Source: Muricea muricata (lineage: Eukaryota > Cnidaria > Anthozoa > Malacalcyonacea > Plexauridae). From it: 64,000 nucleotides of DNA. Of this stretch, positions 12,901 to 64,000 are shown piece after piece. Position numbers and translations under genes: made by a program. Below the pieces are notes generated by a model, which saw only the letters and a list, made by a program, of their open reading frames with translations, did not search any database and had not been told where the DNA came from. The stretch is from NCBI GenBank assembly GCA_963855995.1, contig OY979725.1, positions 12,070,383 to 12,134,382 on the forward strand. Direction: 5' to 3'. Within the stretch, counting starts at the first letter, position 1. Each line of letters starts with the position of its first letter.

Positions 12901-14266
12901 ACACGTTTATATCCCCATGTGCAGGCAACTGATTGGAATTAAATCCATGCAGCGTAAGTTTATGGCTCATGCAATTTTGTTTCTACTCTATTTCAGATTG
13001 TCACTTACGGGATGTTGGTCGCTCTGGTATATCAGTTATCTCGCAGTTACGGCGTCATTGAAGACAACAATACCAAAAGACTATTCCCTCGAGCTGTATC
13101 TTATCTCGTAAACTTCATGTGTTTTATGACAATCATGGTAGGCAGTGTGATCATCAGTACACTAGACATCTCACACATTCAAGCAAAGTGGATAAAAAAG
13201 TTGCATGAATCGCTTGGGCTGCCATAAAAATCTCAAAACAAACTCGAGATTGCGATTTCTCTCATATATGCGCTCTTCTAATTTTTAGGGTTACTCCATA
13301 CAAGCTTACGGTTGTCGTGGGAAGGTGCAATGTAATGCGGTTCATTCTGTAGTCTCGTTTTTGCCGGTGAGTTCGCGTTTATGTAACCATTGCTAGCGTA
13401 TTTCTTGTGGGCTGGTATATGCGACGTGATTTCGGTACATTGAAAACACTCGTTGGGCCAGACATTGTGTCATTAAAGAACTGAAATAATGGGGTATAGA
13501 AAATGAAACTAACTGCTCGCAATTGTATTTCTTTCTCCAGATAACCGCCTTTATTCTTCTGCGCAATCTCAGTGGTTTTATGCGCTCGCACTTCAGCACT
13601 TTTTATGCTTGGGTTGGAAAAATGTCTTTGGAGGTAAATCATAGTTTACTGTTGTCGTTCTGTTTTCTGTGTGCCAGTAAAGTATGTGCAATTTCGGTTC
13701 GACCTATAGTGCGAGATGAAATCTCAGCTATCGCTTGATAGCGTTGTCTCTTGTGTGAGCATGTACAATGAGTGTTACATTGGCAGTGTCGGTAGTGCAG
13801 TAAAAAAACGCACAGAAACATAAGAACTTTCGCTATCTGAAACGATGGTATGTCTACACCGTTTCAGGAAAGATCCCGTGCTTTTCTGTGCAGATCTAAC
13901 GTAGTCTAGATTCGTATATGAACAGGCCTTGCGGGGAGAACTGCAAAACTCAGCTATAGTTGCCTCATTACAGTTTAACATTTTTCTCGTGTCTAGTTAT
14001 TCGTGGGACAGTACCATATCTGGTTAGCGAACGACACAAAGGGAATTCTGGTCCTCATTCCAGATCAACCACTGTTGAACGTTGTGATAACAACATTTGT
14101 TTTCGTATGCGTTTGTCATGAAGTTAGCAAGGTAACGGTTGTCCTTACCAGGGCGCTAGTTTCCAAAGACGTTCGTGTAATGTTGAGGCGACTCGTCATA
14201 TTTATAATTATGCTATTTATTATTTGGTGGCATAAAACTCACCACGATAAAGGTAAGGTACGGTGA
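3908..14266 (+). CDS. CASD1: CASD1-like sialate O-acetyltransferase, complete 22-exon gene
   Basis: CASD1 is the Golgi membrane enzyme that O-acetylates sialic acid; relatives include fungal Cas1p and plant RWA proteins. Exons: 3908-4133, 5370-5475, 5559-5682, 6309-6350, 6552-6614, 7026-7070, 7206-7248, 7695-7847, 8619-8709, 8818-8923, 9462-9586, 10073-10137, 10224-10353, 10815-10923, 11066-11155, 11424-11543, 11932-12088, 12292-12476, 12997-13137, 13289-13366, 13541-13633, 13997-14266. The total is 2562 nt or 853 residues; human CASD1 is 797. All introns are GT-AG and phases agree throughout. The order is: cytosolic N-terminus, membrane anchor near residues 55-71, luminal SGNH esterase-like domain with GDS (Ser128) and DGLH (Asp322, His325) as the expected catalytic triad, then a multi-pass acyltransferase domain from about residue 360. 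Motifs include [35 protein letters not shown] and QYHIWLA. The end (DKGKVR) aligns with the vertebrate C-terminus. Start choice: first ATG of this exon; a second in-frame ATG lies 12 codons later. The substrate in this organism is not shown. Confidence 0.94.
4134..5369 (+). other. CASD1 intron 1
   Basis: The longest early intron (1236 bp). It is AT-rich, with several copies of a CAAACCTTCCTC motif near 4797-5050. I see no gene or clear transposon; ORFs here lack any recognisable product. Confidence 0.7.
6671..6988. mobile_element. Two-hairpin MITE, copy 1 (CASD1 intron)
   Basis: It starts TAGAATCATACTAG and ends near CTAATTGTTAA. Two internal hairpins are visible: an inverted CTCGCTATCT pair around 6724-6755, and one with arms around TTTCTATGTGTTGACAG and its partner near 6940-6960. 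The same element, better preserved, lies at 37541-37832. No coding capacity. Confidence 0.7.
7987..8213. repeat. 81-bp tandem repeat, 3 copies
   Basis: Units beginning ACGTTGTCAGTGTAGGTAGT start near 7988, 8069 and 8150. The third is slightly shortened. It lies in the CASD1 intron before the exon at 8619. Related single copies (CAGTGTCGGTAGTGCAGT) occur near 13786, and a more diverged one near 23726, so this is a dispersed repeat that expanded locally. Confidence 0.8.
8262..8393. repeat. Poly-G tract followed by hairpin (ATTCATCTTCTGCCCGACGA arms)
   Basis: An uninterrupted G-run (about 8270-8284) precedes a hairpin. The arms lie at about 8305-8330 and 8347-8372 and are essentially perfect complements, with a short AT-rich loop. 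Probably a small MITE. The G-run may be an assembly weak point. Confidence 0.65.
8993..9012. repeat. Poly-G tract
   Basis: A run of about 19 G residues in a CASD1 intron. It is one of several homopolymer G or C runs in the window (others near 2741, 3009, 6461, 8270, 20033 and 22346). Confidence 0.85.
9040..9370. repeat. Degenerate tandem repeat (CTCTCATC...GACAAGAGAG units)
   Basis: About four diverged units of roughly 75-90 bp, each containing a CTCATCCTCGTTTGAC-like stretch followed by a GACAAGAGAG-like stretch. It lies within a CASD1 intron. Confidence 0.6.
9774..9870 (+). mobile_element. tRNA-derived SINE fragment
   Basis: A tRNA-like head begins GACCGCGTAGCGCAGTTGG (A-box like) and contains GGTTCGATTCC (B box). 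A 7-bp acceptor-like stem can pair (GACCGCG with CGTGGTC, one G-U), but the D, anticodon and T stems carry mismatches, so it reads as a SINE head and not a functional tRNA gene. It lies in a CASD1 intron. Confidence 0.65.
11656..11912 (+). mobile_element. tRNA-derived SINE, family A copy 1
   Basis: Starts GGGGCTTCGGTGGTGTAGTG (A box) and has GAGTTCGATCCCC (B box) about 50 bp later. A longer body contains GTACTCCGGTTTCCTCTCAC and ends near TGCCCTTGTTGCG. Copies of the same family lie at 23397-23640 and 24241-24355. This copy lies in the CASD1 intron just before the exon at 11932. Confidence 0.8.
12545..12645 (-). mobile_element. tRNA-derived SINE fragment, reverse orientation
   Basis: On the minus strand it reads GAGTGCGTAGCTCGGTAAGC (A box) and GGAGGTTCGATTCCCACC (B box), followed by TTGATCAGG. 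It is related to, but distinct from, the SINE at 9774. It lies in a CASD1 intron. Confidence 0.7.

Positions 14267-22502: not shown

Positions 22503-22573
<71 letters not shown>
22503..22573. repeat. (TA)n microsatellite
   Basis: About 35 uninterrupted TA dinucleotides. The Ile/Tyr-only ORFs on both strands are artefacts of this repeat. Confidence 0.98.
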
Positions 22574-30345: not shown

Positions 30346-30915
30346 ATCGTCAAAACGAGAGCCAGATGCTCGGTCACCAGTGCCAGATGACCAGATGTCA
30401 GGCGACTAGTGCCAGATGTCAGGCGACCAGTGCCAGATGTCAGATGACCAGTTCCAGATGACCAGATGTCAGATGACCAGTTCCAGATTCCAGACGACCA
30501 GTGCCAGCTGTCAGACGACCAGTGCCAGATGACCAGATGCCAGACGACCAGGGCAGATGACCAGATGTCAGACGACCAGTGCCAGATGACCAGACGACCA
30601 GTGCCAGATGCCAGATGACCAGGGCAGATGACCAGATGTCAGACGACCAGTGCCAGACTGATGCCAGACGACCAGTGCCAGCTGTCAGACGACCAGTGCC
30701 AGATGACCAGATGCCAGACGACCAGTGCCAGATGACCAGATGTAAGACGACCAGTGCCAGATGACCAGATTCCAGACAGCAAGTTCCAGATGTCAGACGA
30801 CCAGGGAAGATAACCAGATGTCAGACGACCAGTACCAGACGACTAGATGCCAGACGTACAGTACCAGATGACCAAATGCCAGATAAGCAGTGCCAGATGA
30901 CCAGATGCCTGACGA
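30346..30915 (+). repeat. CCAGATG/CCAGTG minisatellite
   Basis: About 570 bp built from 10-13 bp words such as GCCAGATGACCAGATGTC and AGACGACCAGTGCC in irregular order. GC content is clearly higher than the surroundings. The ORF covering 30579-30764 is translated repeat (DDQ-rich). Confidence 0.92.
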
Positions 30916-40804: not shown

Positions 40805-42452
40805 TAAGGTCCTAAAAATTACAGCTAACATCATTGTGCCATCCTTAACATATATTTTTAATGTATCCCTTGAATCTGGTATATATGTAGACGCTTGGAA
40901 ATTGGCTAAGATAATTCCTATTTACAAGTCTGAAGATCGAAAAAAATGCGAAAATTACCGACCAATTTAAATATTACCGGTAATAAGTAAAGTGTTTGAA
41001 AGTGAAATCTGTAGTCAACTCTATGAGTACTTAAACGAAAATACCCTGCTGTCGGATCGTCAATGCGGATTTCGACCCAAATACGGAACAAATGCCACAC
41101 TGATAAAAATGTGCGACCTGTGGCTAAGTCACATAGATAAAGGAGAGTTAAATTAACGGAGTTGTTTTCTTCGATATTCGGAAAGCGTTTGATTCTTTTG
41201 ACCATAAAATTCTTTTGAAAAAACTTAAGAATCAATTCGCAATTTATGATAATGAATTAAAATGGTTCTCATCATACTTGAATAATAGGACGCAAGTCTG
41301 TTATGTTAATGACAAACATCTGCACCTAAAATAATTGTAAATGGTATTCCCCAGGGCTCAATCCTAGGGCCATTGTTATTCCTACTATACATTAATGATT
41401 TACCGGACAATTTAGAAAAATCAACCCCCTTTCTCTATGCGGACGACACACAAATCTCCTCATTTTCAGACAATTATGATACTTTGGTTGAAAATCTGAA
41501 TTGTGATTTACACAACATTCACAATTGTGAATTGGCTGTCTGACAACAAGTTGCAACATCTTTTAAAAAAGTGCAAAGTAATGTTTATTGGTTCTCCGCG
41601 TAACTTAACTAATAAGATAGGAGACAAACCAGCATTAATCAACAATGCTCCAGTTCCTCGCACCGGAACGTTCACTTGTCTGGGGGTTAAACTGGATGGG
41701 AAACTGAACTGGGATAACCATATCGACTCTATTTGCCAGAAGGTCAGCGCTGGAATGGGGATAATGAGGAGAATAAAACTTATGTTCCCAGAAAAACTAG
41801 ATATAATGATCTAGTAATGCCATATTTTGATTATTGTTCCCCATTATGGGACACGTGTAGCAAAGAGCTGCAAGATAAATTACAAAAATATCATAACAGG
41901 GCAGCCAGGGTCATCAGTGGAGCTAGCTATGAGACTCGATCTACAGACGTCTTGAAAAGTTTAGGGTAGGAGACTCTTGAAATGAAGACGTCGTCGAAGT
42001 AAGGCTATTTTGATGTATAAAATTCTCAATGACCACTCCGCCCCAAATCTAAAAAAACTGTTTAACAAGAGAAATGAAATCCAGACTTCATATAATTTGC
42101 GAAACAATCAAACAGATATGACTCTGCCTAACCCAAAAACTGAATATTTGAAACGAACCCTAGGGTACAACGGCGCAAAGTTATGGAATAGTTTGCCGCA
42201 GCATTCGAAGGTAGCTGCCTCTATTTCTTCTTTCAAAAATACGATTGCCGATTTTGAACTGAATTGCACCTAGATTTGTGATCTTATCTACGTTTGTGCA
42301 TGTGTTGGTTTTAACTTTTTATACTGGCTTATGTTATTCTTCTTGCATTTTATAAGTATTCTACATATTTTATTTGTGTGACGCCCCTCGTGGAAAACAG
42401 CTGTAAATAGTTGTCGAGGCTAGCGTGTTTAAATAAAGTTTTACATACATAC
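40805..42452 (+). pseudogene. CR1/Jockey-type LINE reverse transcriptase, broken and 5'-truncated
   Basis: The reverse transcriptase copies the element's RNA at the insertion site. Recognisable blocks in order: DAWKLAKIIPIYKSEDRKKC, NYRPI then ILPVISKVFE, DRQCGFRPKYGTNATL, FFDIRKAFDSFDH, GIPQGSILGPLLF then YINDLP, the catalytic YADD at 41436-41447, TFTCLGVKLDGKLNWDNHI, and the C-terminal tail YNLRN then LKRTLGYNGAKLWNSLPQ. In-frame stops near 40967 and 41155 and frameshifts near 41330, 41500 and 41810 kill it. It ends with a TACA tail at 42440-42455. The endonuclease half is absent. Family placement within the Jockey/CR1 group is by motif style only. Confidence 0.85.
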
Positions 42453-45464: not shown

Positions 45465-46027
45465 AATCGCTTTGGAACATGGTGGAAATGACCGAATGTC
45501 GCATTGTATTTCAAAAACTTAGTTTAAAGTTCTGGCAAAGTATCATAGCTATGTCTCACCTTGTCCATGATTTTGTCCACTTGGCCTCCCAATGAAATTC
45601 TATGTGCTGCCTGTCTTGATTTAGAATTTTTGCGTTTTGCAGCAAAACCATTTTCCATTGAAATCAGTTGAAATTTTGCATGCAAGACTGTACCACTGGT
45701 CTCTTAAGAATAAACTAACTTTGGACATGTCTCATAACATTTGAAAAAGCTTAGTGGGAGATACCTCTTGTTGTAACTTTTTTCCTCATTGTTAATTGTT
45801 GCAGAATTGTACCTGAAATTTTGACAATGTGCAATTTGTGATGAAATTCATCGAAACTTGGTGGAAATGACCAAATGACGCATTGTTTGTGGAAAAACCT
45901 AGTTTGCAGTTCTGAAAATGCATTATAGTTATGTTTCAAGTTGCCCATGCTTTTACCCATTGTCTCGTTACATTTGGAAAAGCTTAGTGGGAGATACCTC
46001 TTGTTGTAACTTTTTTCCTCAATGTTA
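45465..46027 (+). repeat. Diverged forerunner repeats of the 355-bp satellite
   Basis: Two partial units share GGTGGAAATGACCAAATGACG-like, AAAACTTAGTTT and AAAGCTTAGTGGGAGATACC words. AGCTTAGTGGGAGATACCTC occurs at about 45749 and again at about 45977. The last unit runs into the first satellite unit through TTAACTTATCTTATTGCTG. The region also matches 15890-16450. Confidence 0.75.
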
Positions 46028-49000
46028 ACTTATCTTATTGCTGATTTAGGATTTGACTCATTTCACCTATTTTGGCTGAACATTGGCCTTGGATGTGGTA
46101 AGTGTTTTCATTCGGCATTTTCCCATATTACATGGAAATGATGTAAAATTCTTCATGCATTACCGGATCAGCTCACGCTCGGATTTTAGCTAAGTTTGGG
46201 GCACTAGAGATGTACTTGGGACACTGTGCTAGTGTTGACCACTATGTTTGAACTTTTCCCACTTTGGTATATTGGCCTGAATTTTTGAAATTTTTCTAAA
46301 TGCGATGAAATGTCATGAAACTTAGCTCAAAATGATGAATTAGGTCATTGTATATGAAAAAACTTAGTTTGGAACCGGAACAACTTATCTTATTGCTGTT
46401 TTAGGATTTGACTCATTTCACCTATTTTGGCTGAACATTGGCCTTGGATGTGGTAAGTGTTTTCATTCGGCATTTTCCCATATTACATGGAAATGATGTA
46501 AAATTCTTCATGCATTACCGGATCAGCTCACGCTCGGATTTTAGCTAAGTTTGGGGCACTAGAGATGTACTTGGGACACGCTGCTAGTGTTGACCACTAT
46601 GTTTGAACTTTTCCCACTTTGGTATATTGGCCTGAATTTTTGAAATTTTTCTAAATGCGATGAAATGTCATGAAAATTAGCTCAAAATGATGAATTAGGT
46701 CATTGTATATGAAAAAACTTAGTTTGGAACCGGAACAACTTATCTTATTGCTGTTTTAGGATTTGACTCATTTCACCTATTTTGGCTGAACATTGGCCTT
46801 GGATGTGGTAAGTGTTTTCATTCGGCATTCTCCCATATTACATGGAAATGATGTAAAATTCTTCATGCATTACCGGATCAGCTCACGCTCGGATTTTAGC
46901 TAAGTTTGGGGCACTAGAGATGTACTTGGGACACGCTGCTAGTGTTGACCACTATGTTTGAACTTTTCCCACTTTGGTATATTGGCCTGAATTTTTGAAA
47001 TTTGTCTAAATGCGATGAAATGTCATGAAACTTAGCTCAAAATGATGAATTAGGTCATTGTATATGAAAAAACTTAGTTTGGAACTGGAACAACTTATCT
47101 TATTGCTTTTTTAGGATTTGACTCATTTCACCTATTTTTGCTGAACATTGGCCTTGGATGTGGTAAGTGTTTTCATTCGGCATTTTCCCATATTACATGG
47201 AAATGATGTAAAATTCTTCATGCATTACCGGATCAGCTCACGCTCGGATTTTAGCTAAGTTTGGGGCACTAGAGATGTACTTGGGACACTCTGCTAGTGT
47301 TGACCACTATGTTTGAACTTTTCCCACTTTGGTATATTGGCCTGAATTTTTGAAATTTTTCTAAATGCGATGAAATGTCATGAAACTTAGCTCAAAATGA
47401 TGAATTAGGTCATTGTATATGAAAAAACTTAGTTTGGAACCGGAACAACTTATCTTATTGCTGTTTTAGGATTTGACTCATTTCACCTATTTTTGCTGAA
47501 CATTGGCCTTGGATGTGGTAAGTGTTTTCATTCGGCATTTTCCCATATTACATGGAAATGATGTAAAATTCTTCATGCATTACCGGATCAGCTCACGCTC
47601 GGATTTTAGCTAAGTTTGGGGCACTAGAGATGTACTTGGGACACTGTGCTAGTGTTGACCACTATGTTTGAACTTTTCCCACTTTGGTATATTGGCCTGA
47701 ATTTTTGAAATTTTTCTAAATGCGATGAAATGTCATGAAACTTAGCTCAAAATGATGAATTAGGTCATTGTATATGAAAAAACTTAGTTTGGAACCGGAA
47801 CAACTTATCTTATCGCTGTTTTAGGATTTGACTCATTTCACCTATTTTGGCTGAACATTGGCCTTGGATGTGGTAAGTGTTTTCATTCGGCATTTTCCCA
47901 TATTACATGGAAATGATGTAAAATTCTTCATGCATTACCGGATCAGCTCACGCTCGGATTTTAGCTAAGTTTGGGGCACTAGAGATGTACTTGGGACACG
48001 CTGCTAGTGTTGACCACTATGTTTGAACTTTTCCCACTTTGGTATATTGGCCTGAATTTTTGAAATTTTTCTAAATGCGATGAAATGTCATGAAACTTAG
48101 CTCAAAGTGGTGAGTTAGGTCATTGTATATGAAAAAACTTAGTTTGGAACCGGAACAACTTATCTTATTGCTGTTTTAGGATTTGACTCATTTCACCTAT
48201 TTTGGCTGAACATTGGCCTTGGATGTGGTAAGTGTTTTCATTCGGCATTCTCCCATATTACATGGAAATGATGTAAAATTCTTCATGCATTACCGGATCA
48301 GCTCACGCTCGGATTTTAGCTAAGTTTGGGGCACTAGAGATGTACTTGGGACACGCTGCTAGTGTTGACCACTATGTTTGAACTTTTCCCACTTTGGTAT
48401 ATTGGCCTGAATTTTTGAAATTTGTCTAAATGCGATGAAATGTCATGAAACTTAGCTCAAAATGATGAATTAGGTCATTGTATATGAAAAAACTTAGTTT
48501 GGAACTGGAACAACTTATCTTATTGCTGTTTTAGGATTTGACTCATTTCACCTATTTTTGCTGAACATTGGCCTTGGATGTGGTAAGTGTTTTCATTCGG
48601 CATTTTCCCATATTACATGGAAATGATGTAAAATTCTTCATGCATTACCGGATCAGCTCACGCTCGGATTTTAGCTAAGTTTGGGGCACTAGAGATGTAC
48701 TTGGGACACTCTGCTAGTGTTGACCACTATGTTTGAACTTTTCCCACTTTGGTATATTGGCCTGAATTTTTGAAATTTTTCTAAATGCGATGAAATGTCA
48801 TGAAACTTAGCTCAAAATGATGAATTAGGTCATGGTATATGAAAAAACTTAGTTTGGAACCGGAACAACTTATCTTATTGCTGTTTTAGGATTTGACTCA
48901 TTTCACCTATTTTGGCTGAACATTGGCCTTGGATGTGGTAAGTGTTTTCATTCGGCATTTTCCCATATTACATGGAAATGACGTAAAATTCTTCATGCAT

Positions 49001-52000
49001 TACCGGATCAGCTCACGCTCGGTTTTTAGCTAAGTTTGGGGCACTAGAGATGTACTTGGGACACTCTGCTAGTGTTGACCACTATGTTTGAACTTTTCCC
49101 ACTTTGGTATATTGGCCTGAATTTTTGAAATTTTTCTAAATGCGATGAAATGTCATGAAACTTAGCTCAAAATGATGAATTAGGTCATTGTATATGAAAA
49201 AACTTAGTTTGGAACCGGAACAACTTATCTTATTGCTGTTTTAGGATTTGACTCATTTCACCTATTTTGGCTGGACATTGGCCTTGGATGTGGTAAGTGT
49301 TTTCATTCGGCATTTTCCCATATTACATGGAAATGATGTAAAATTCTTCATGCATTACCGGATCAGCTCACGCTCGGATTTTAGCTAAGTTTGGGGCACT
49401 AGAGATGTATTTGGGACACTCTGCTAGTGTTGACCACTATGTTTGAACTTTTCCCACTTTGGTATATTGGCCTGAATTTTTGAAATTTTTCTAAATGCGA
49501 TGAAATGTCATGAAACTTAGCTCAAAATGATGAATTAGGTCATTGTATATGAAAAAACTTAGTTTGGAACCGGAACAACTTATCTTATTGCTGTTTTAGG
49601 ATTTGACTCATTTCACCTATTTTGGCTGGACATTGGCCTTGGATGTGGTAAGTGTTTTCATTCGGCATTTTCCCATATTACATGGAAATGATGTAAAATT
49701 CTTCATGCATTACCGGATCAGCTCACGCTCGGATTTTAGCTAAGTTTGGGGCACTGGAGATGTACTTGGGACACTCTGCTGGTGTTGACCACTATGTTTG
49801 AACTTTTCCCACTTTGGTATATTGGCCTGAATTTTTGAAATTTTTCTAAATGCGATGAAATGTCATGAAACTTAGCTCAAAATGATGAATTAGGTCATTG
49901 TATATGAAAAAACTTAGTTTGGAACCGGAACAACTTATCTTATTGCTGTTTTAGGATTTGACTCATTTCACCTATTTTTGCTGAACATTGGCCTTGGATG
50001 TGGTAAGTGTTTTCATTCGGCATTTTCCCATATTACATGGAAATGATGTAAAATTCTTCATGCATTACCGGATCAGCTCACGCTCGAATTTTAGCTAAGT
50101 TTGGGGCACTAGAGATGTACTTGGGACACTCTGCTAGTGTTGACCACTTTGTTTGAACTTTTCCCACTTTGGTATATTGGCCTGAATTTTTGAAATTTTT
50201 CTAAATGCGATGAAATGTCATGAAACTTAGCTCAAAATGATGAATTAGGTCATTGTATATGAAAAAACTTAGTTTGGAACCGGAACAACTTATCTTATTG
50301 CTGTTTTAGGATTTGACTCATTTCAGCTATTTTTGCTGAACATTGGCCATGGATGTGGTAAGTGTTTTCATTCGGCATTTTCCGATATTACATGGAAATG
50401 ATGTAAAATTCTTCATGCATTACCGGATCAGCTCACGCTCGAATTTTAGCTAAGTTTGGGGCACTAGAGATGTATTTGGGACACTCTGCTAGTGTTGACC
50501 ACTATGTTTGAACTTTTCCCACTTTGGTATATTGGCCTGAATTTTTGAAATTTTTCTAAATGCGATGAAATGTCATGAAACTTAGCTCAAAATGATGAAT
50601 TAGGTCATGGTATATGAAAAAACTTAGTTTGGAACCGGAACAACTTATCTGATTGCTGTTTTAGGATTTGACTCATTTCACCTATTTTTGCTGAACATTG
50701 GCCTTGGATGTGGTAAGTGTTTTCATTCGGCATTTTCCCATATTACATGGAAATGATGTAAAATTTTTCATGCATTACCGGATCAGCTCACGCTCGAATT
50801 TTAGCTAAGTTTGGGGCACTAGAGATGTACTTGGGACACTCTGCTAGTGTTGACCACTATGTTTGAACTTTTCCCACTTTGGTATATTGGCCTGAATTTT
50901 TGAAATTTTTCTAAATGCGATGAAATGTCATGAAACTTAGCTCAAAATGATGAATTAGGTCATTGTATATGAAAAAACTTAGTTTGGAACCGGAACAACT
51001 TATCTTATTGCTGTTTTAGGATTTGACTCATTTCAGCTATTTTTGCTGAACATTGGCCATGGATGTGGTAAGTGTTTTCATTCGGCATTTTCCGATATTA
51101 CATGGAAATGATGTAAAATTCTTCATGCATTACCAGATCAGCTCACGCTCGGATTTTAGCTAAGTTTGGGGCACTAGAGATGTACTTGGGACACTCTGCT
51201 AGTGTTGACCACTATGTTTGAACTTTTCCCACTTTGGTATATTGGCCTGAATTTTTGAAATTTTTCTAAATGCAATGAAATGTCATGAAACTTAGCTCAA
51301 AATGATGAATTAGGTCATTGTATATGAAAAAACTTAGTTTGGAACCGGAACAACTTATCTTATTGCTGTTTTAGGATTTGACTCATTTCACCTATTTTTG
51401 CTGAACATTGGCCTTGGATGTGGTAAGTGTTTTCATTCGGCATTTTCCCATATTACATGGAAATGATGTAAAATTCTTCATGCATTACCGGATCAGCTCA
51501 CGCTCGGATTTTAGCTAAGTTTGGGGCACTAGAGATGTACTTGGGACACTCTGCTAGTGTTGACCACTATGTTTGAACTTTTCCCACTTTGGTATATTGG
51601 CCTGAATTTTTGAAATTTTTCTAAATGCGATGAAATGTCATGAAACTTAGCTCAAAATGATGAATTAGGTCATTGTATATGAAAAAACTTAGTTTGGAAC
51701 CAGAACAACTTATCTTATTGCTGTTTTAGGATTTGACTCATTTCACCTATTTTTGCTGAACATTGGCCTTGGATGTGGTAAGTGTTTTCATTCGGCATTT
51801 TCCCATATTACATGGAAATGATGTAAAATTCTTCATGCATTACCGGATCAGCTCACGCTCGAATTTTAGCTAAGTTTGGGGCACTAGAGATGTACTTGGG
51901 ACACTTTGCTAGTGTTGACCACTTTGTTTGAACTTTTCCCACTTTGGTATATTGGCCTGAATTTTTGAAATTTTTCTAAATGCGATGAAATGTCATGAAA

Positions 52001-55000
52001 CTTAGCTCAAAATGATGAATTAGGTCATGGTATATGAAAAAACTTAGTTTGGAACCGGAACAACTTATCTTATTGCTGTTTCAGGATTTGACTCATTTCA
52101 GCTATTTTTGCTGAACATTGGCCATGGATGTGGTAAGTGTTTTCATTCGGCATTTTCCGATATTACATGGAAATGATGTAAAATTCTTCATGCATTACCG
52201 GATCAGCTCACGCTCGAATTTTAGCTAAGTTTGGGGCACTAGAGATGTATTTGGGACACTCTGCTAGTGTTGACCACTATGTTTGAACTTTTCCCACTTT
52301 TGTATATTGGCCTGAATTTTTGAAATTTTTCTAAATGCGATGAAATGTCATGAAACTTAGCTCAAAATGATGAATTAGGTCATGGTATATGAAAAAACTT
52401 AGTTTGGAACCGGAACAACTTATCTGATTGCTGTTTTAGGATTTGACTCATTTCACCTATTTTTGCTGAACATTGGCCTTGGATGTGGTAAGTGTTTTCA
52501 TTCGGCATTTTCCGATATTACATGGAAATGATGTAAAATTTTTCATGCATTACCGGATCAGCTCACGCTCGAATTTTAGCTAAGTTTGGGGCACTAGAGA
52601 TGTACTTGGGACACTCTGCTAGTGTTGACCACTATGTTTGAACTTTTCCCACTTTGGTATATTGGCCTGAATTTTTGAAATTTTTCTAAATGCGATGAAA
52701 TGTCATGAAACTTAGCTCAAAATGATGAATTAGGTCATTGTATATGAAAAAACTTAGTTTGGAACCGGAACAACTTATCTTATTGCTGTTTTAGGATTTG
52801 ACTCATTTCAGCTATTTTTGCTGAACATTGGCCATGGATGTGGTAAGTGTTTTCATTCGGCATTTTCCGATTTTACATGGAAATGATGTAAAATTCTTCA
52901 TGCATTACCAGATCAGCTCACGCTCGGATTTTAGCTAAGTTTGGGGCACTAGAGATGTACTTGGGACACTCTGCTAGTGTTGACCACTATGTTTGAACTT
53001 TTCCCACTTTGGTATATTGGCCTGAATTTTTGAAATTTTTCTAAATGCAATGAAATGTCATGAAACTTAGCTCAAAATGATGAATTAGGTCATTGTATAT
53101 GAAAAAACTTAGTTTGGAACCGGAACAACTTATCTTATTGCTGTTTTAGGATTTGACTCATTTCACCTATTTTTGCTGAACATTGGCCTTGGATGTGGTA
53201 AGTGTTTTCATTCGGCATTTTCCCATATTACATGGAAATGATGTAAAATTCTTCATGCATTACCGGATCAGCTCACGCTCCGATTTTAGCTAAGTTTGGG
53301 GCACTAGAGATGTACTTGGGACACTCTGCTAGTGTTGACCACTATGTTTGAACTTTTCCCACTTTGGTATATTGGCCTGAATTTTTGAAATTTTTCTAAA
53401 TGCGATGAAATGTCATGAAACTTAGCTCAAAATGATGAATTAGGTCATTGTATATGAAAAAACTTAGTTTGGAACCGGAACAACTTATCTTATTGCTGTT
53501 TTAGGATTTGACTCATTTCACCTATTTTGGCTGAACATTGGCCTTGGATGTGGTAAGTGTTTTCATTCGGCATTTTCCCATATTACATGGAAATGATGTA
53601 AAATTCTTCATGCATTACCGGATCAGCTCACGCTCGGATTTTAGCTAAGTTTGGGGCACTAGAGATGTACTTGGGACACTCTGCTAGTGTTGACCACTAT
53701 GTTTGAACTTTTCCCACTTTGGTATATTGGCCTGAATTTTTGAAATTTTTCTAAATGCGATGAAATGTCATGAAACTTAGCTCAAAATGATGAATTAGGT
53801 CATTGTATATGAAAAAACTTAGTTTGGAACCAGAACAACTTATCTTATTGCTGTTTTAGGATTTGACTCATTTCACCTATTTTTGCTGAACATTGGCCTT
53901 GGATGTGGTAAGTGTTTTCATTCGGCATTTTCCCATATTACATGGAAATGATGTAAAATTCTTCATGCATTACCGGATCAGCTCACGCTCGGATTTTAGC
54001 TAAGTTTGGGGCACTAGAGATGTACTTGGGACACTCTGCTAGTGTTGACCACTATGTTTGAACTTTTCCCACTTTGGTATATTGGCCTGAATTTTTGAAA
54101 TTTTTCTAAATGCGATGAAATGTCATGAAACTTAGCTCAAAATGATGAATTAGGTCATTGTTTATGAAAAAACTTAGTTTGGAACCGGAACAACTTATCT
54201 TATTGCTGTTTTAGGATTTGACTCATTTCACCTATTTTTGCTGAACATTGGCCTGGGATGTGGTAAGTGTTTTCATTCGGCATTTTCCCATATTGCATGG
54301 AAATGATGTAAAATTCTTCATGCATTACCGGATCAGCTCACGCTCGGATTTTAGCTAAGTTTGGGGCACTAGAGATGTACTTGGGACACTCTGCTAGTGT
54401 TGACCACTATGTTTGAACTTTTCCCACTTTGGTATATTGGCCTGAATTTTTGAAATTTTTCTAAATGCGATGAAATGTCATGAAACTTAGCTCAAAATGA
54501 TGAATTAGGTCATGGTATATGAAAAAACTTAGTTTGGAACCGGAACAACTTATCTTATTGCTGTTTTAGGATTTGACTCATTTCACCTATTTTTGCTGAA
54601 CATTGGCCTTGGATGTGGTAAGTGTTTTCATTCGGCATTTTCCCATATTACATGGAAATGATGTAAAATTCTTCATGCATTACCGGATCAGCTCACGCTC
54701 GGATTTTAGCTAAGTTTGGGGCACTAGAGATGTACTTGGGACACTCTGCTAGTGTTGACCACTATGTTTGAACTTTTCCCACTTTGGTATATTGGCCTGA
54801 ATTTTTGAAATTTTTCTAAATGCGATGAAATGTCATGAAACTTAGCTCAAAATGATGAATTAGGTCATTGTATATGAAAAAACTTAGTTTGGAACCGGAA
54901 CAACTTATCTTATTGCTGTTTTAGGATTTGACTCATTTCACCTATTTTGGCTGAACATTGGCCTTGGATGTGGTAAGTGTTTTCATTCAGCATTCTCCCA

Positions 55001-58000
55001 TATTACATGGAAATGATGTAAAATTCTTCATGCATTACCGGATCAGCTCACGCTCGGATTTTAGCTAAGTTTGGGGCACTAGAGATGTACTTGGGACACG
55101 CTGCTAGTGTTGACCACTATGTTTGAACTTTTCCCACTTTGGTATATTGGCCTGAATTTTTGAAATTTGTCTAAATGCGATGAAATGTCATGAAACTTAG
55201 CTCAAAATGATGAATTAGGTCATTGTATATGAAAAAACTTAGTTTGGAACCGGAACAACTTATCTTATTGCTGTTTTAGGATTTGACTCATTTCACCTAT
55301 TTTTGCTGAACATTGGCCTGGGATGTGGTAAGTGTTTTCATTCGGCATTTTCCCATATTGCATGGAAATGATGTAAAATTCTTCATGCATTACCGGATCA
55401 GCTCACGCTCGGATTTTAGCTAAGTTTGGGGCACTAGAGATGTACTTGGGACACTCTGCTAGTGTTGACCACTATGTTTGAACTTTTCCCACTTTGGTAT
55501 ATTGGCCTGAATTTTTGAAATTTTTCTAAATGCGATGAAATGTCATGAAACTTAGCTCAAAATGATGAATTAGGTCATGGTATATGAAAAAACTTAGTTT
55601 GGAACCGGAACAACTTATCTTATTGCTGTTTTAGCATTTGACTCATTTCACCTATTTTGGCTGAACATTGGCCTTGGATGTGGTAAGTGTTTTCATTCGG
55701 CATTTTCCCATATTACATGGAAATGATGTAAAATTCTTCATGCATTACCGGATCAGCTCACGCTCGGATTTTAGCTAAGTTTGGGGCACTAGAGATGTAC
55801 TTGGGACACTGTGCTAGTGTTGACCACTATGTTTGAACTTTTCCCACTTTGGTATATTGGCCTGAATTTTTGAAATTTTTCTAAATGCGATGAAATGTCA
55901 TGAAACTTAGCTCAAAATGATGAATTAGGTCATTGTATATGAAAAAACTTAGTTTGGAACCGGAACAACTTATGTTATTGCTGTTTTAGGATTTGACTCA
56001 TTTCACCTATTTTGGCTGAACATTGGCCTTGGATGTGGTAAGTGTTTTCATTCGGCATTCTCCCATATTACATGGAAATGATGTAAAATTCTTCATGCAT
56101 TACCGGATCAGCTCACGCTCGGATTTTAGCTAAGTTTGGGGCACTAGAGATGTACTTGGGACACTCTGCTAGTGTTGACCACTTTGTTTGAACTTTTCCC
56201 AGTTTGGTATATTGGCCTGAATTTTTGAAATTTTTCTAAATGCGATGAAATGTCATGAAACTTAGCTCAAAATGATGAATTAGGTCATTGTATATGAAAA
56301 AACTTAGTTTGGAACCAGAACAACTTATCTTATTGCTGTTTTAGGATTTGACTCATTTCACCTATTTTTGCTGAACATTGGCCTTGGATGTGGTAAGTGT
56401 TTTCATTCGGCATTTTCCCATATTACATGGAAATGATGTAAAATTCTTCATGCATTACCGGATCAGCTCACGCTCGGATTTTAGCTAAGTTTGGGGCACT
56501 AGAGATGTACTTGGGACACTCTGCTAGTGTTGACCACTATGTTTGAACTTTTCCCACTTTGGTATATTGGCCTGAATTTTTGAAATTTTTCTAAATGCGA
56601 TGAAATGTCATGAAACTTAGCTCAAAATGATGAATTAGGTCATTGTATATGAAAAAACTTAGTTTGGAACCGGAACAACTTATCTTATTTCTGTTTTAGG
56701 ATTTGACTCATTTCACCTATTTTTGCTGAACATTGGCCTTGGATGTGGTAAGTGTTTTCATTCGGCATTTTCCCATATTACATGGAAATGATGTAAAATT
56801 CTTCATGCATTACCGGATCAGCTCACGCTCGGATTTTAGCTAAGTTTGGGGCACTAGAGATGTACTTGGGACACTCTGCTAGTGTTGACCACTATGTTTG
56901 AACTTTTCCCACTTTGGTATATTGGCCTGAATTTTTGAAATTTTTCTAAATGCGATGAAATGTCATGAAACTTAGCTCAAAATGATGAATTAGGTCATGG
57001 TATATGAAAAAACTTAGTTTGGAACCGGAACAACTTATCTTATTGCTGTTTTAGGATTTGACTCATTTCACCTATTTTTGCTGAACATTGGCCTTGGATG
57101 TGGTAAGTGTTTTCATTCGGCATTTTCCCATATTACATGGAAATGATGTAAAATTCTTCATGCATTACCGGATCAGCTCACGCTCGGATTTTAGCTAAGT
57201 TTGGGGCACTAGAGATGTACTTGGGACACGCTGCTAGTGTTGACCACTATGTTTGAACTTTTCCCACTTTGGTATATTGGCCTGAATTTTTGAAATTTTT
57301 CTAAATGCGATGAAATGTCATGAAACTTAGCTCAAAATGATGAATTAGGTCATTGTATATGAAAAAACTTAGTTTGGAACCGGAACAACTTATCTTATTG
57401 CTGTTTTAGGATTTGACTCATTTCACCTATTTTGGCTGAACATTGGCCTTGGATGTGGTAAGTGTTTTCATTTGGCATTCTCCCATATTACATGGAAATG
57501 ATGTAAAATTCTTCATGCATTACCGGATCAGCTCACGCTCGGATTTTAGCTAAGTTTGGGGCACTAGAGATGTACTTGGGACACGCTGCTAGTGTTGACC
57601 ACTATGTTTGAACTTTTCCCACTTTGGTATATTGGCCTGAATTTTTGAAATTTTTCTAAATGCGATGAAATGTCATGAAACTTAGCTCAAAATGATGAAT
57701 TAGGTCATTGTATATGAAAAAACTTAGTTTGGAACTGGAACAACTTATCTTATTGCTGTTTTAGGATTTGACTCATTTCACCTATTTTTGCTGAACATTG
57801 GCCTTGGATGTGGTAAGTGTTTTCATTCGGCATTTTCCCATATTACATGGAAATGATGTAAAATTCTTCATGCATTACCGGATCAGCTCACGCTCGGATT
57901 TTAGCTAAGTTTGGGGCACTAGAGATGTACTTGGGACACTCTGCTAGTGTTGACCACTATGTTTGAACTTTTCCCACTTTGGTATATTGGCCTGAATTTT

Positions 58001-61000
58001 TGAAATTTTTCTAAATGCGATGAAATGTCATGAAACTTAGCTCAAAATGATGAATTAGGTCATTGTATATGAAAAAACTTAGTTTGGAACCGGAACAACT
58101 TATCTTATTGCTGTTTTAGGATTTGACTCATTTCACCTATTTTGGCTGAACAATGGCCTTGGATGTGGTAAGTGTTTTCATTCGGCATTTTCCCATATTA
58201 CATGGAAATGATGTAAAATTCTTCATGCATTACCGGATCAGCTCACGCTCGAATTTTAGCTAAGTTTGGGGCACTAGAGATGTACTTGGGACACTCTGCT
58301 AGTGTTGACCACTATGTTTGAACTTTTCCCACTTTGGTATATTGGCCTGAATTTTTGAAATTTTTCTAAATGCGATGAAATGTCATGAAACTTAGCTCAA
58401 AATGATGAATTAGGTCATTGTATATGAAAAAACTTAGTTTGGAACCGGAACAACTTATCTTATTGCTGTTTTAGGATTTGACTCATTTCACCTATTTTTG
58501 CTGAACATTGGCCTTGGATGTGGTAAGTGTTTTCATTCGGCATTTTCCCATATTACATGGAAATGATGTAAAATTCTTCATGCATTACCGGATCAGCTCA
58601 CGCTCGGATTTTAGCTAAGTTTGGGGCACTAGAGATGTACTTGGGACACTGTGCTAGTGTTGACCACTATGTTTGAACTTTTCCCACTTTGGTATATTTG
58701 CCTGAATTTTTGAAATTTTTCTAAATGCGATGAAATGTCATGAAACTTAGCTCAAAATGATGAATTAGGTCATTGTATATGAAAAAACTTAGTTTGGAAC
58801 CGGAACAACTTATCTTATTGCTGTTTTAGGATTTGACTCATTTCACCTATTTTGGCTGAACATTGGCCTTGGATGTGGTAAGTGTTTTCATTCGGCATTC
58901 TCCCATATTACATGGAAATGATGTAAAATTCTTCATGCATTACCGGATCAGCTCACGCTCGGATTTTAGCTAAGTTTGGGGCACTAGAGATGTACTTGGG
59001 ACACTCTGCTAGTGTTGACCACTATGTTTGAACTTTTCCCACTTTGGTATATTGGCCTGAATTTTTGAAATTTTTCTAAATGCGATGAAATGTCATGAAA
59101 CTTAGCTCAAAATGATGAATTAGGTCATTGTATATGAAAAAACTTAGTTTGGAACCAGAACAACTTATCTTATTGCTGTTTTAGGATTTGACTCATTTCA
59201 CCTATTTTTGCTGAACATTGGCCTTGGATGTGGTAAGTGTTTTCATTTGGCATTTTCCCATATTACATGGAAATGATGTAAAATTCTTCATGCATTACCG
59301 GATCAGCTCACGCTCGGATTTTAGCTAAGTTTGGGGCACTAGAGATGTACTTGGGACACTCTGCTAGTGTTGACCACTATGTTTGAACTTTTCCCACTTT
59401 GGTATATTGGCCTGAATTTTTGAAATTTTTCTAAATGCGATGAAATGTCATGAAACTTAGCTCAAAATTATGAATTGGGTCATTGTATATGAAAAAACTT
59501 AGTTTGGAACCGGAACAACTTATCTTATTGCTGTTTTAGGATTTGACTCATTTCACCTATTTTTGCTGAACATTGGCCTGGGATGTGGTAAGTGTTTTCA
59601 TTCGGCATTTTCCCATATTGCATGGAAATGATGTAAAATTCTTCATGCATTACCGGATCAGCTCACGCTCGGATTTTAGCTAAGTTTGGGGCACTAGAGA
59701 TGTACTTGGGACACTCTGCTAGTGTTGACCACTATGTTTGAACTTTTCCCACTTTGGTATATTGGCCTGAATTTTTGAAATTTTTCTAAATGCGATGAAA
59801 TGTCATGAAACTTAGCTCAAAATGATGAATTAGGTCATTGTATATGAAAAAACTTAGTTTGGAACCGGAACAACTTATCTTATTGCTGTTTTAGGATTTG
59901 ACTCATTTCACCTATTTTTGCTGAACATTGGCCTTGGATGTGGTAAGTGTTTTCATTCGGCATTTTCCCATATTACATGGAAATGATGTAAAATTCTTCA
60001 TGCATTACCGGATCAGCTCACGCTCGGATTTTAGCTAAGTTTGGGGCACTAGAGATGTACTTGGGACACTGTGCTAGTGTTGACCACTATGTTTGAACTT
60101 TTCCCACTTTGGTATATTGGCCTGAATTTTTGAAATTTTTCTAAATGCGATGAAATGTCATGAAACTTAGCTCAAAATGATGAATTAGGTCATTGTATAT
60201 GAAAAAACTTAGTTTGGAACCGGAACAACTTATCTTATTTCTGTTTTAGGATTTGACTCATTTCACCTATTTTTGCTGAACATTGGCCTTGGATGTGGTA
60301 AGTGTTTTCATTCGGCAATCTCCCATATTACATGGAAATGATGTAAAATTCTTCATGCATTACCGGATCAGCTCACGCTCGGATTTTAGCTAAGTTTGGG
60401 GCACTAGAGATGTACTTGGGACACGCTGCTAGTGTTGACCACTATGTTTGAACTTTTCCCACTTTGGTATATTGGCCTGAATTTTTGAAATTTGTCTAAA
60501 TGCGATGAAATGTCATGAAACTTAGCTCAAAATGATGAATTAGGTCATTGTATATGAAAAAACTTAGTTTGGAACTGGAACAACTTATCTTATTGCTGTT
60601 TTAGGATTTGACTCATTTCACCTATTTTTGCTGAACATTGGCCTTGGATGTGGTAAGTGTTTTCATTCGGCATTTTCCCATATTACATGGAAATGATGTA
60701 AAATTCTTCATGCATTACCGGATCAGCTCACGCTCGGATTTTAGCTAAGTTTGGGGCACTAGAGATGTACTTGGGACACTGTGCTAGTGTTGACCACTAT
60801 GTTTGAACTTTTCCCACTTTGGTATATTGGCCTGAATTTTTGAAATTTTTCTAAATGCGATGAAATGTCATGAAACTTAGCTCAAAATGATGAATTAGGT
60901 CATTGTATATGAAAAAACTTAGTTTGGAACCGGAACAACTTATCTTATTGCTGTTTTAGGATTTGACTCATTTCACCTATTTTTGCTGAACATTGGCCTT

Positions 61001-64000
61001 GGATGTGGTAAGTGTTTTCATTCGGCATTTTCCCATATTACATGGAAATGATGTAAAATTCTTCATGCATTACCGGATCAGCTCACGCTCGGATTTTAGC
61101 TAAGTTTGGGGCACTAGAGATGTACTTGGGACACTGTGCTAGTGTTGACCACTATGTTTGAACTTTTCCCACTTTGGTATATTGGCCTGAATTTTTGAAA
61201 TTTTTCTAAATGCGATGAAATGTCATGAAACTTAGCTCAAAATGATGAATTAGGTCATTGTATATGAAAAAACTTAGTTTGGAACCGGAACAACTTATCT
61301 TATTGCTGTTTTAGGATTTGACTCATTTCACCTATTTTTGCTGAACATTGGCCTTGGATGTGGTAAGTGTTTTCATTCGGCATTTTCCCATATTACATGG
61401 AAATGATGTAAAATTCTTCATGCATTACCGGATCAGCTCACGCTCCGATTTTAGCTAAGTTTGGGGCACTAGAGATGTACTTGGGACACTCTGCTAGTGT
61501 TGACCACTATGTTTGAACTTTTCCCACTTTGGTATATTGGCCTGAATTTTTGAAATTTTTCTAAATGCGATGAAATGTCATGAAACTTAGCTCAAAATGA
61601 TGAATTAGGTCATTGTATATGAAAAAACTTAGTTTGGAACCGGAACAACTTATCTTATTGCTGTTTTAGGATTTGACTCATTTCACCTATTTTGGCTGAA
61701 CATTGGCCTTGGATGTGGTAAGTGTTTTCATTCGGCATTTTCCCATATTACATGGAAATGATGTAAAATTCTTCATGCATTACCGGATCAGCTCACGCTC
61801 GGATTTTAGCTAAGTTTGGGGCACTAGAGATGTACTTGGGACACTCTGCTAGTGTTGACCACTATGTTTGAACTTTTCCCACTTTGGTATATTGGCCTGA
61901 ATTTTTGAAATTTTTCTAAATGCGATGAAATGTCATGAAACTTAGCTCAAAATGATGAATTAGGTCATTGTATATGAAAAAACTTAGTTTGGAACCAGAA
62001 CAACTTATCTTATTGCTGTTTTAGGATTTGACTCATTTCACCTATTTTTGCTGAACATTGGCCTTGGATGTGGTAAGTGTTTTCATTCGGCATTTTCCCA
62101 TATTACATGGAAATGATGTAAAATTCTTCATGCATTACCGGATCAGCTCACGCTCGGATTTTAGCTAAGTTTGGGGCACTAGAGATGTACTTGGGACACT
62201 CTGCTAGTGTTGACCACTATGTTTGAACTTTTCCCACTTTGGTATATTAGCCTGAATTTTTGAAATTTTTCTAAATGCGATGAAATGTCATGAAACTTAG
62301 CTCAAAATGATGAATTAGGTCATTGTATATGAAAAAACTTAGTTTGGAACCGGAACAACTTATCTTATTGCTGTTTTAGGATTTGACTCATTTCACCTAT
62401 TTTTGCTGAACATTGGCCTGGGATGTGGTAAGTGTTTTCATTCGGCATTTTCCCATATTGCATGGAAATGATGTAAAATTCTTCATGCATTACCGGATCA
62501 GCTCACGCTCGGATTTTAGCTAAGTTTGGGGCACTAGAGATGTACTTGGGACACTCTGCTAGTGTTGACCACTATGTTTGAACTTTTCCCACTTTGGTAT
62601 ATTGGCCTGAATTTTTGAAATTTTTCTAAATGCGATGAAATGTCATGAAACTTAGCTCAAAATGATTAATTAGGTGATGGTATATGAAAAAACTTAGTTT
62701 GGAACCGGAACAACTTATCTTATTGCTGTTTTAGGATTTGACTCATTTCACCTATTTTTGCTGAACATTGGCCTTGGATGTGGTAAGTGTTTTCATTCGG
62801 CATTTTCCCATATTACATGGAAATGATGTAAAATTCTTCATGCATTACCGGATCAGCTCACGCTCGGATTTTAGCTAAGTTTGGGGCACTAGAGATGTAC
62901 TTGGGACACTGTGCTAGTGTTGACCACTATGTTTGAACTTTTCCCACTTTGGTATATTGGCCTGAATTTTTGAAATTTTTCTAAATGCGATGAAATGTCA
63001 TGAAACTTAGCTCAAAATGATGAATTAGGTCATTGTATATGAAAAAACTTAGTTTGGAACCGGAACAACTTATCTTATTGCTGTTTTAGGATTTGACTCA
63101 TTTCACCTATTTTGGCTGAACATTGGCCTTGGATGTGGTAAGTGTTTTCATTCGGCATTCTCCCATATTACATGGAAATGATGTAAAATTCTTCATGCAT
63201 TACCGGATCAGCTCACGCTCGGATTTTAGCTAAGTTTGGGGCACTAGAGATGTACTTGGGACACGCTGCTAGTGTTGACCACTATGTTTGAACTTTTCCC
63301 ACTTTGGTATATTGGCCTGAATTTTTGAAATTTGTCTAAATGCGATGAAATGTCATGAAACTTAGCTCAAAATGATGAATTAGGTCATTGTATATGAAAA
63401 AACTTAGTTTGGAACTGGAACAACTTATCTTATTGCTGTTTTAGGATTTGACTCATTTCACCTATTTTTGCTGAACATTGGCCTTGGATGTGGTAAGTGT
63501 TTTCATTCGGCATTTTCCCATATTACATGGAAATGATGTAAAATTCTTCATGCATTACCGGATCAGCTCACGCTCGGATTTTAGCTAAGTTTGGGGCACT
63601 AGAGATGTACTTGGGACACTCTGCTAGTGTTGACCACTATGTTTGAACTTTTCCCACTTTGGTATATTGGCCTGAATTTTTGAAATTTTTCTAAATGCGA
63701 TGAAATGTCATGAAACTTAGCTCAAAATGATGAATTAGGTCATTGTATATGAAAAAACTTAGTTTGGAACCGGAACAACTTATCTTATTGCTGTTTTAGG
63801 ATTTGACTCATTTCACCTATTTTGGCTGAACATTGGCCTTGGATGTGGTAAGTGTTTTCATTCGGCATTTTCCCATATTACATGGAAATGATGTAAAATT
63901 CTTCATGCATTACCGGATCAGCTCACGCTCGGATTTTAGCTAAGTTTGGGGCACTAGAGATGTACTTGGGACACTCTGCTAGTGTTGACCACTATGTTTG
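46028..64000 (+). repeat. 355-bp satellite array, ~50.6 units, continuing past the window
   Basis: Units repeat with a period of exactly 355 bp: the word GATTTGACTCATTTCACC starts at 46050 and, 50 periods later, at 63800, with no net insertion or deletion. Units differ by scattered substitutions only. Each unit has two similar halves (first half ATTTGACTCATTTCACC, then TTAGCTAAGTTTGG; second half TTTGAACTTTTCCCAC, then CTTAGTTTGGAAC), so the monomer looks like an old dimer of about 175 bp. 355 is not a multiple of 3 and no frame is open across a unit. Each unit holds a splice-site pair around 48 nt (separate entry). No CENP-B-box-like motif seen. Confidence 0.97.
46050..46097 (+). other. Latent 48-nt symmetric micro-exon, first of 51 copies (period 355)
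   Basis: The segment is preceded by a pyrimidine-rich acceptor (CTTATTGCTGATTTAG here, CTTATTGCTGTTTTAG in most units) and followed by the consensus donor GTAAGTG. It is 48 nt long and open in the frame that enters and leaves in phase 1, so concatenated copies would stay open and encode repeats of GFDSFHLFWLNIGLGC. Among the copies I read, Trp9 is often Leu; His6/Gln, Leu14/His, Asn11/Asp and Ile12/Asn variants occur; none has a stop. The variants are mostly amino-acid-changing, which does not suggest protein-level constraint. Whether it is transcribed or spliced is unknown. Confidence 0.3.

What the first reader, a model, noticed from the sequence alone, without database searches (positions are those of the whole stretch)
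46050..64000. Every 355-bp satellite unit contains a splice-competent, phase-symmetric 48-nt open segment
All units carry TTTTAG (one TTTCAG, one ATTTAG) before, and GTAAGTG after, a 48-nt stretch that is open only in the 1-1 frame. Spliced together, 51 copies would give up to 816 residues of a 16-residue repeat (GFDSFHLFWLNIGLGC), with uniform 307-nt introns. Symmetric short exons repeated in a gene recall the micro-exon genes of schistosomes, but a satellite made of such units would be new to my knowledge. Against it: the variants I see are mostly nonsynonymous, and the rest of the unit is as conserved as the exon.
Basis: partly seen in the sequence, partly recalled or inferred. Interest (0 to 1): 0.75.

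Follow-up and report, generated by a model that had tools for sequence, protein, structure and literature searches.

The report
Ordinary satellite with chance exon-like segment
A 355-letter DNA unit repeated head to tail hundreds of times happens to contain a short stretch that looks like a tiny gene segment, but the stretch changes as freely as the rest and is incomplete in the repeat's distant relatives, so it is most likely a coincidence copied along with an ordinary satellite repeat.

Summary
The array runs from window 46027 to C10:12372036, 255.6 kb or roughly 720 units. In all 698 full-length units tallied (674 main array, 24 from a second array) the AG, the GT and the open 1-1 frame of the 48-nt segment are intact. 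The two splice words are by far the best acceptor and donor of the unit and score in the range of a Pfam-verified exon of the window. An equally good symmetric open pair appeared in 2 of 2000 shuffles. The gene reading is not supported. Alleles inside the segment look neutral (4 synonymous, 10 nonsynonymous in the main array; 34 and 104 possible), diversity there is no lower than elsewhere, and between arrays it differs at least as much as the rest. In 25 rows from diverged relatives none has both AG and GT. The same satellite was seen directly on six contigs (3,654 word matches genome-wide), and some units have lost the acceptor. ORF lists of the flanks show no exon to join. Best account: a homogenised satellite whose founder unit carried a cryptic, splice-competent cassette. 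Some conservation hints point the other way and are reported. No RNA data were available, so a spliced array transcript is not excluded, but unlikely.

The parts
46027..64000 (+). 355-bp satellite array (window part; continues to C10:12372036)
   Evidence: TRF period 355, 98%; continuation and right end
46050..46097 (+). first copy of the 48-nt exon-like segment (unit positions 24-71), open in the 1-1 frame
   Evidence: sequence, unit tally
46048..46049 (+). acceptor-like AG of the first unit (ATTTAG here; TTTTAG in 672 of 674 units tallied)
46098..46104 (+). donor-like GTAAGTG of the first unit
45480..46026 (+). left flank: diverged relative of the satellite, up to 84% like short tandem arrays (units mostly 355-366 bp) on ten other contigs and elsewhere on C10; 45812-45906 is 73% like unit positions 250-345

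Best explanation
This is an ordinary, strongly homogenised satellite DNA of 355-bp units, one branch of an old superfamily of ~355-366-bp tandem repeats in this genome. The founder unit of the branch happened to carry a good 3' and a good 5' splice word 48 nt apart with an open frame between them. Unequal exchange, gene conversion or rolling amplification copied that unit by the hundred, so the copies have the cassette without selection for it. If the array is ever transcribed on this strand, the cassette may act as a cryptic exon. Shown: array, cassette, homogeneity, dispersal, neutral allele pattern, lack of the complete cassette in the diverged relatives sampled. Inferred: chance origin, the copying mechanism, and lack of function.
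For: Segment alleles of the main array: 4 synonymous, 10 nonsynonymous; possible single changes 34 synonymous, 104 nonsynonymous, 6 stop; Fisher p 0.74 with stops counted as nonsynonymous. Diversity 0.0172 in the segment against 0.0135 in the 281 positions outside segment, splice words and pyrimidine tract (main), and 0.0389 against 0.0381 (contig-end array). Consensus units of the two arrays differ at 2 of 48 segment sites, both nonsynonymous (one of them also polymorphic in the main array), against 8 of 307 elsewhere; 468 bases from C15 differ from the main consensus at 5 of 48 distinct segment sites (one synonymous, by my own reading) against 7 of 307. Of 25 rows from diverged relatives, 15 have AG, 2 have GT, 0 have both, 13 have a 49-nt segment. 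The satellite word occurs 3,654 times genome-wide (reversed control 0), on several contigs and both strands. 30 of 1,964 otherwise matching copies have lost the acceptor AG. No higher-order pattern seen.
Against: The pair of splice words is better than chance (2 of 2000 shuffles). AG, GT and frame are unbroken in all 698 units tallied, and the segment is among 8 of 74 overlapping consensus-open windows never interrupted in the main array. Segregating sites are fewer in the segment of the main array (14 of 48 against 145 of 307, p 0.02), though not in the contig-end array (12 of 48 against 61 of 307). The acceptor AG is lost in 30 of 1,964 copies (1.5%) against 532 of 2,968 (17.9%) for one intronic AG used as control. 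That is one control site only, and 383 of its 532 losses are on the reverse strand, which looks like a subfamily variant. The matching donor count was never obtained.
Confidence: 0.86

Rival explanations
1. The array is transcribed and the 48-nt segments are spliced as cryptic exons of a non-coding or occasional read-through RNA, without a selected protein.
For: Splice words score in the range of a Pfam-verified exon of this window; a non-coding RNA from a subtelomeric tandem repeat is reported in birds (PMC4301066, title and start of abstract seen).
Against: No RNA data; no neighbouring exon recognised; no promoter was sought; no consistent constraint.
Confidence: 0.09
2. A giant repeat-exon gene: successive 48-nt exons with 307-nt introns encode up to hundreds of 16-residue repeats.
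For: Symmetric open segment in 698 of 698 units tallied; acceptor AG lost less often genome-wide than one intronic control AG.
Against: Neutral allele spectrum, change between arrays mostly nonsynonymous, no complete cassette in 25 rows of relatives, last copy cut off after 6 bases of the segment without its GTAAGTG, no profile match at cut-off.
Confidence: 0.03
3. The satellite arose from an exon and intron of a former gene, amplified with its splice sites.
For: Good splice pair; 15 of 25 rows of diverged relatives have an AG at the acceptor position.
Against: 2 of 25 rows have GT at the donor position and none has both, so the complete exon is not ancestral to the superfamily as sampled.
Confidence: 0.02

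Closest known systems
Satellite DNA evolving in concert (general kind, recalled)
   Same: Head-to-tail units of constant length, 98% alike, hundreds of copies, several contigs, diverged sister families in short arrays
   Different: Carries an unusually good splice-like pair around an open symmetric segment
Micro-exon genes of schistosomes (MEGs)
   Same: Very small symmetric exons (definition seen in passages of PMC4350168)
   Different: MEGs are expressed genes; here no transcript is known, units are near identical, and segment and rest are about equally variable
Genes with homogenised tandem exon-intron units, such as flagelliform silk or apolipoprotein(a) kringles (recalled, no call)
   Same: Tandem exon plus intron units kept alike by exchange
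   Different: Those have flanking exons, transcripts and a selected reading frame
Exonised repeats such as Alu exons (titles and abstract starts seen)
   Same: A repeat that carries latent splice sites
   Different: No transcript seen here, and the repeat is a satellite array

Membership tests
Satellite DNA | long head-to-tail array of near-identical units | tested here: met
Satellite DNA | recurrence in several arrays of the genome, homogenised within arrays | tested here: met
Satellite DNA | heterochromatic, subtelomeric or centromeric location | tested here: inconclusive
   One array is at the very end of contig C10 and one within 0.25 Mb of the end of C15, but the main array is 1.5 Mb inside C10
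Micro-exon gene / repeat-exon gene | short symmetric open segments with splice words | tested here: met
Micro-exon gene / repeat-exon gene | reading frame under selection | tested here: not met
   mild opposite hints
Micro-exon gene / repeat-exon gene | first and last exons next to the array | tested here: inconclusive
   None recognised in lists of ORFs of 60 aa or more, 10 kb to the left and 8 kb to the right; shorter exons would be missed
Micro-exon gene / repeat-exon gene | spliced transcript | not testable with these tools

The most novel reading that the evidence does not exclude
A satellite array of about 255 kb is transcribed and spliced into one RNA with up to some 720 near-identical 48-nt exons, giving a repeat protein of up to about 11,500 residues or a scaffold RNA, so that a satellite is also a gene.
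Probability: 0.03. Interest if true: 0.85.

Novelty: new member of a known kind. Interest (0 to 1): 0.2.

Why it matters
If the cassette were used, a satellite would double as a gene with hundreds of exons, which would change how satellite arrays are annotated. As it stands, the case shows how homogenisation can turn one chance motif into a perfectly regular pattern that looks designed, and how diverged sister repeats can weigh on such claims without RNA data.

Tried and rejected
Peptide repeat against Pfam and PDB sequences: nothing at a curated cut-off (best a sub-threshold RRM_Rrp7, E 0.003, on five copies in a row of the Leu form; none in PDB for four copies of the Trp form). Higher-order repeat: none seen in 614 units, mean divergence 1.27-1.40% at lags 1-40. 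Plant-type telomere word: 0 matches, weak evidence against a land plant. Organism: mitochondrial contig C74 of 19,292 bp; a 601-base COX1 fragment reads open under codes 1 and 4 with AGR as Arg. My guess of an octocoral or other cnidarian is from recall; the MutS search meant to test it did not complete. Genome-wide donor count: not completed. Literature: (satellite DNA, 355 bp, tandem repeat, splice) held 0 papers; searches listed none that I recognised as this satellite, from listings and abstract starts only; two searches sought the organism and the micro-exon genes. Passages were seen of PMC4350168 and PMC12856254, no whole paper. The diverged relatives sampled are the five loci that cut out besides the window's own, of 135 matches.

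Full report
Observation. The window lies at C10:12070383-12134382 of a 453-Mb genome in 74 contigs. The 355-bp array starts at window 46027 and fills the rest of the window. I fetched most of its continuation. It ends at C10:12372036, at unit position 29, six bases into the exon-like segment, after 255.6 kb or about 720 units (a figure from length). All units found in the stretches read run on the same strand. A stretch of 16 kb was not read; matches lie through most of it. I tallied 674 units with at least 340 unit positions aligned, plus 24 from a second array of the same satellite, on the opposite strand at the very end of contig C10. Shorter pieces were left out.

The cassette. In all 698 units tallied AG precedes and GT follows a 48-nt segment that is open in the 1-1 frame, without indels. 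GTAAGT itself is altered in 2 of 674 and 2 of 24 units, one by a 4-nt deletion. The two words are the best acceptor and donor of the unit by a wide margin. Shuffles of the unit rarely match them: 2 of 2000 with symmetric length and open frame, 18 of 2000 when both scores are relaxed by 2 bits. In 53.7 kb of flanking DNA the strictest setting finds one pair, a 78-nt segment at 13289-13366, which has no Pfam match of its own. A setting 2 bits looser finds four, among them 13541-13633, which Pfam identifies as part of a Cas1p-type acyltransferase. So the splice scores of the satellite fall in the range of a real exon.

Selection. If the segment coded, changes that keep the protein should be favoured. 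In the main array the segment has 14 minor alleles, 4 synonymous and 10 nonsynonymous; all single changes possible are 34 synonymous, 104 nonsynonymous and 6 stops (Fisher p 0.74). In the second array 13 alleles, 4 synonymous and 9 nonsynonymous. Diversity is 0.0172 in the segment and 0.0135 in the 281 positions outside segment, splice words and pyrimidine tract; in the second array 0.0389 and 0.0381. The consensus units of the two C10 arrays differ at 2 of 48 segment sites, both nonsynonymous, and at 8 of 307 others. A stretch of 468 bases on C15 differs from the main consensus at 5 of 48 and 7 of 307 distinct sites. Results that lean the other way: fewer segregating sites in the segment of the main array (14 of 48 against 145 of 307, p 0.02) but not in the second (12 of 48 against 61 of 307); no interruption of the open frame (true of 8 of 74 overlapping consensus-open windows); and acceptor AG changed in 30 of 1,964 copies genome-wide against 532 of 2,968 for one intronic AG. 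That control is a single site, and its losses are mostly on the reverse strand (840 down to 457 there, 2128 down to 1979 on the forward strand), which suggests a subfamily variant. The donor could not be counted in the same way.

Relatives. The left flank 45480-46026 belongs to a family of short tandem arrays on eleven contigs, C10 included; in the five loci examined the periods are mostly 355-366. A unit consensus of one of them aligns with the 355-bp unit along its whole length, score 184 against 47-66 for five shuffles. At the place of the cassette, 25 rows from five such loci and the flank were examined. AG is present in 15, GT in 2, both in none; segment length is 49 in 13 and a multiple of three in 4. 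In this sample the complete exon is therefore a feature of the 355-bp branch alone, as a recent chance state would be. Of two rows from C15, of the 355-bp branch, both have the donor; one starts inside the segment, the other has the whole cassette.

Dispersal. A 27-base word of the segment occurs 3,654 times genome-wide with up to 2 mismatches, reversed control 0. The satellite was seen directly on C10 and C15 (sequence read) and, by exact words, on C1, C4, C8 and C9; the lists show only first places. On C13, C14 and C16 it is inferred from alignment scores like those of the C10 and C15 arrays. This is satellite behaviour, not that of one gene. No higher-order pattern was seen.

Surroundings. 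Coding traces near the array are degenerate reverse-transcriptase pieces at 40971-42273 and, from about 4.6 kb beyond the right end, a gene with CDC24-type OB domains. I recognised no first or last exon of a repeat protein, but ORFs under 60 aa were not listed. The 16-residue repeat has no match at a curated cut-off in Pfam and none in PDB sequences.

Conclusion. The best account is a homogenised satellite with a chance, splice-competent-looking cassette in its founder unit. Use of the cassette as a cryptic exon in stray transcripts is possible; a selected repeat-exon gene is unlikely. No RNA data could be examined, so this rests on sequence evolution alone.

Noticed in passing
window 13289-14257 (+): Exons of a CASD1-like gene: 13541-13633 matches Pfam Cas1_AcylT (E 1.3e-10); 13289-13366 has no Pfam match and, like about 13996-14255, is assigned by eye.
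   Followed up: partly
window 40971-42273 (+): Degenerate reverse transcriptase pieces; two of them match Pfam RVT_1 (E 5e-5, below the curated cut-off, and 4e-9).
   Followed up: partly
L051:6236-7921 (C10:12376618-12378303): Gene with CDC24-type OB domains 1-3, from 4.6 kb beyond the right end of the array.
   Followed up: partly
C8, C9, C14, C15, C16 and C10: In the listed places the satellite strand tends to be minus near low coordinates and plus at high coordinates (C8 and C9 both; C8 also has a plus array at 6.49 Mb), as if pointing outward at chromosome ends; the contig-end array of C10 is the exception. Contig lengths are known only for C10 and C15.
   Followed up: no
L052:1-1221 (C10:13890796-13892016): T-rich repeat with a GC-rich block recurring about every 290-300 bp, directly beside the contig-end satellite array.
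   Followed up: no
L051:1640-1690: Right junction of the array: the unit breaks off in GGATTTG and is followed by further imperfect GGATTTG/TTTTAGGATTT words, a possible slippage or microhomology junction.
   Followed up: no
G000:C1:38414782-38416095 (-): A second COX1-like match with one stop in a large contig, probably a nuclear copy of mitochondrial DNA.
   Followed up: no
window 30361-30915; 7984-8214; 22503-22573: A CCAGATG-type minisatellite, an 81-bp repeat of three copies, and a pure TA run of 35 copies.
   Followed up: no
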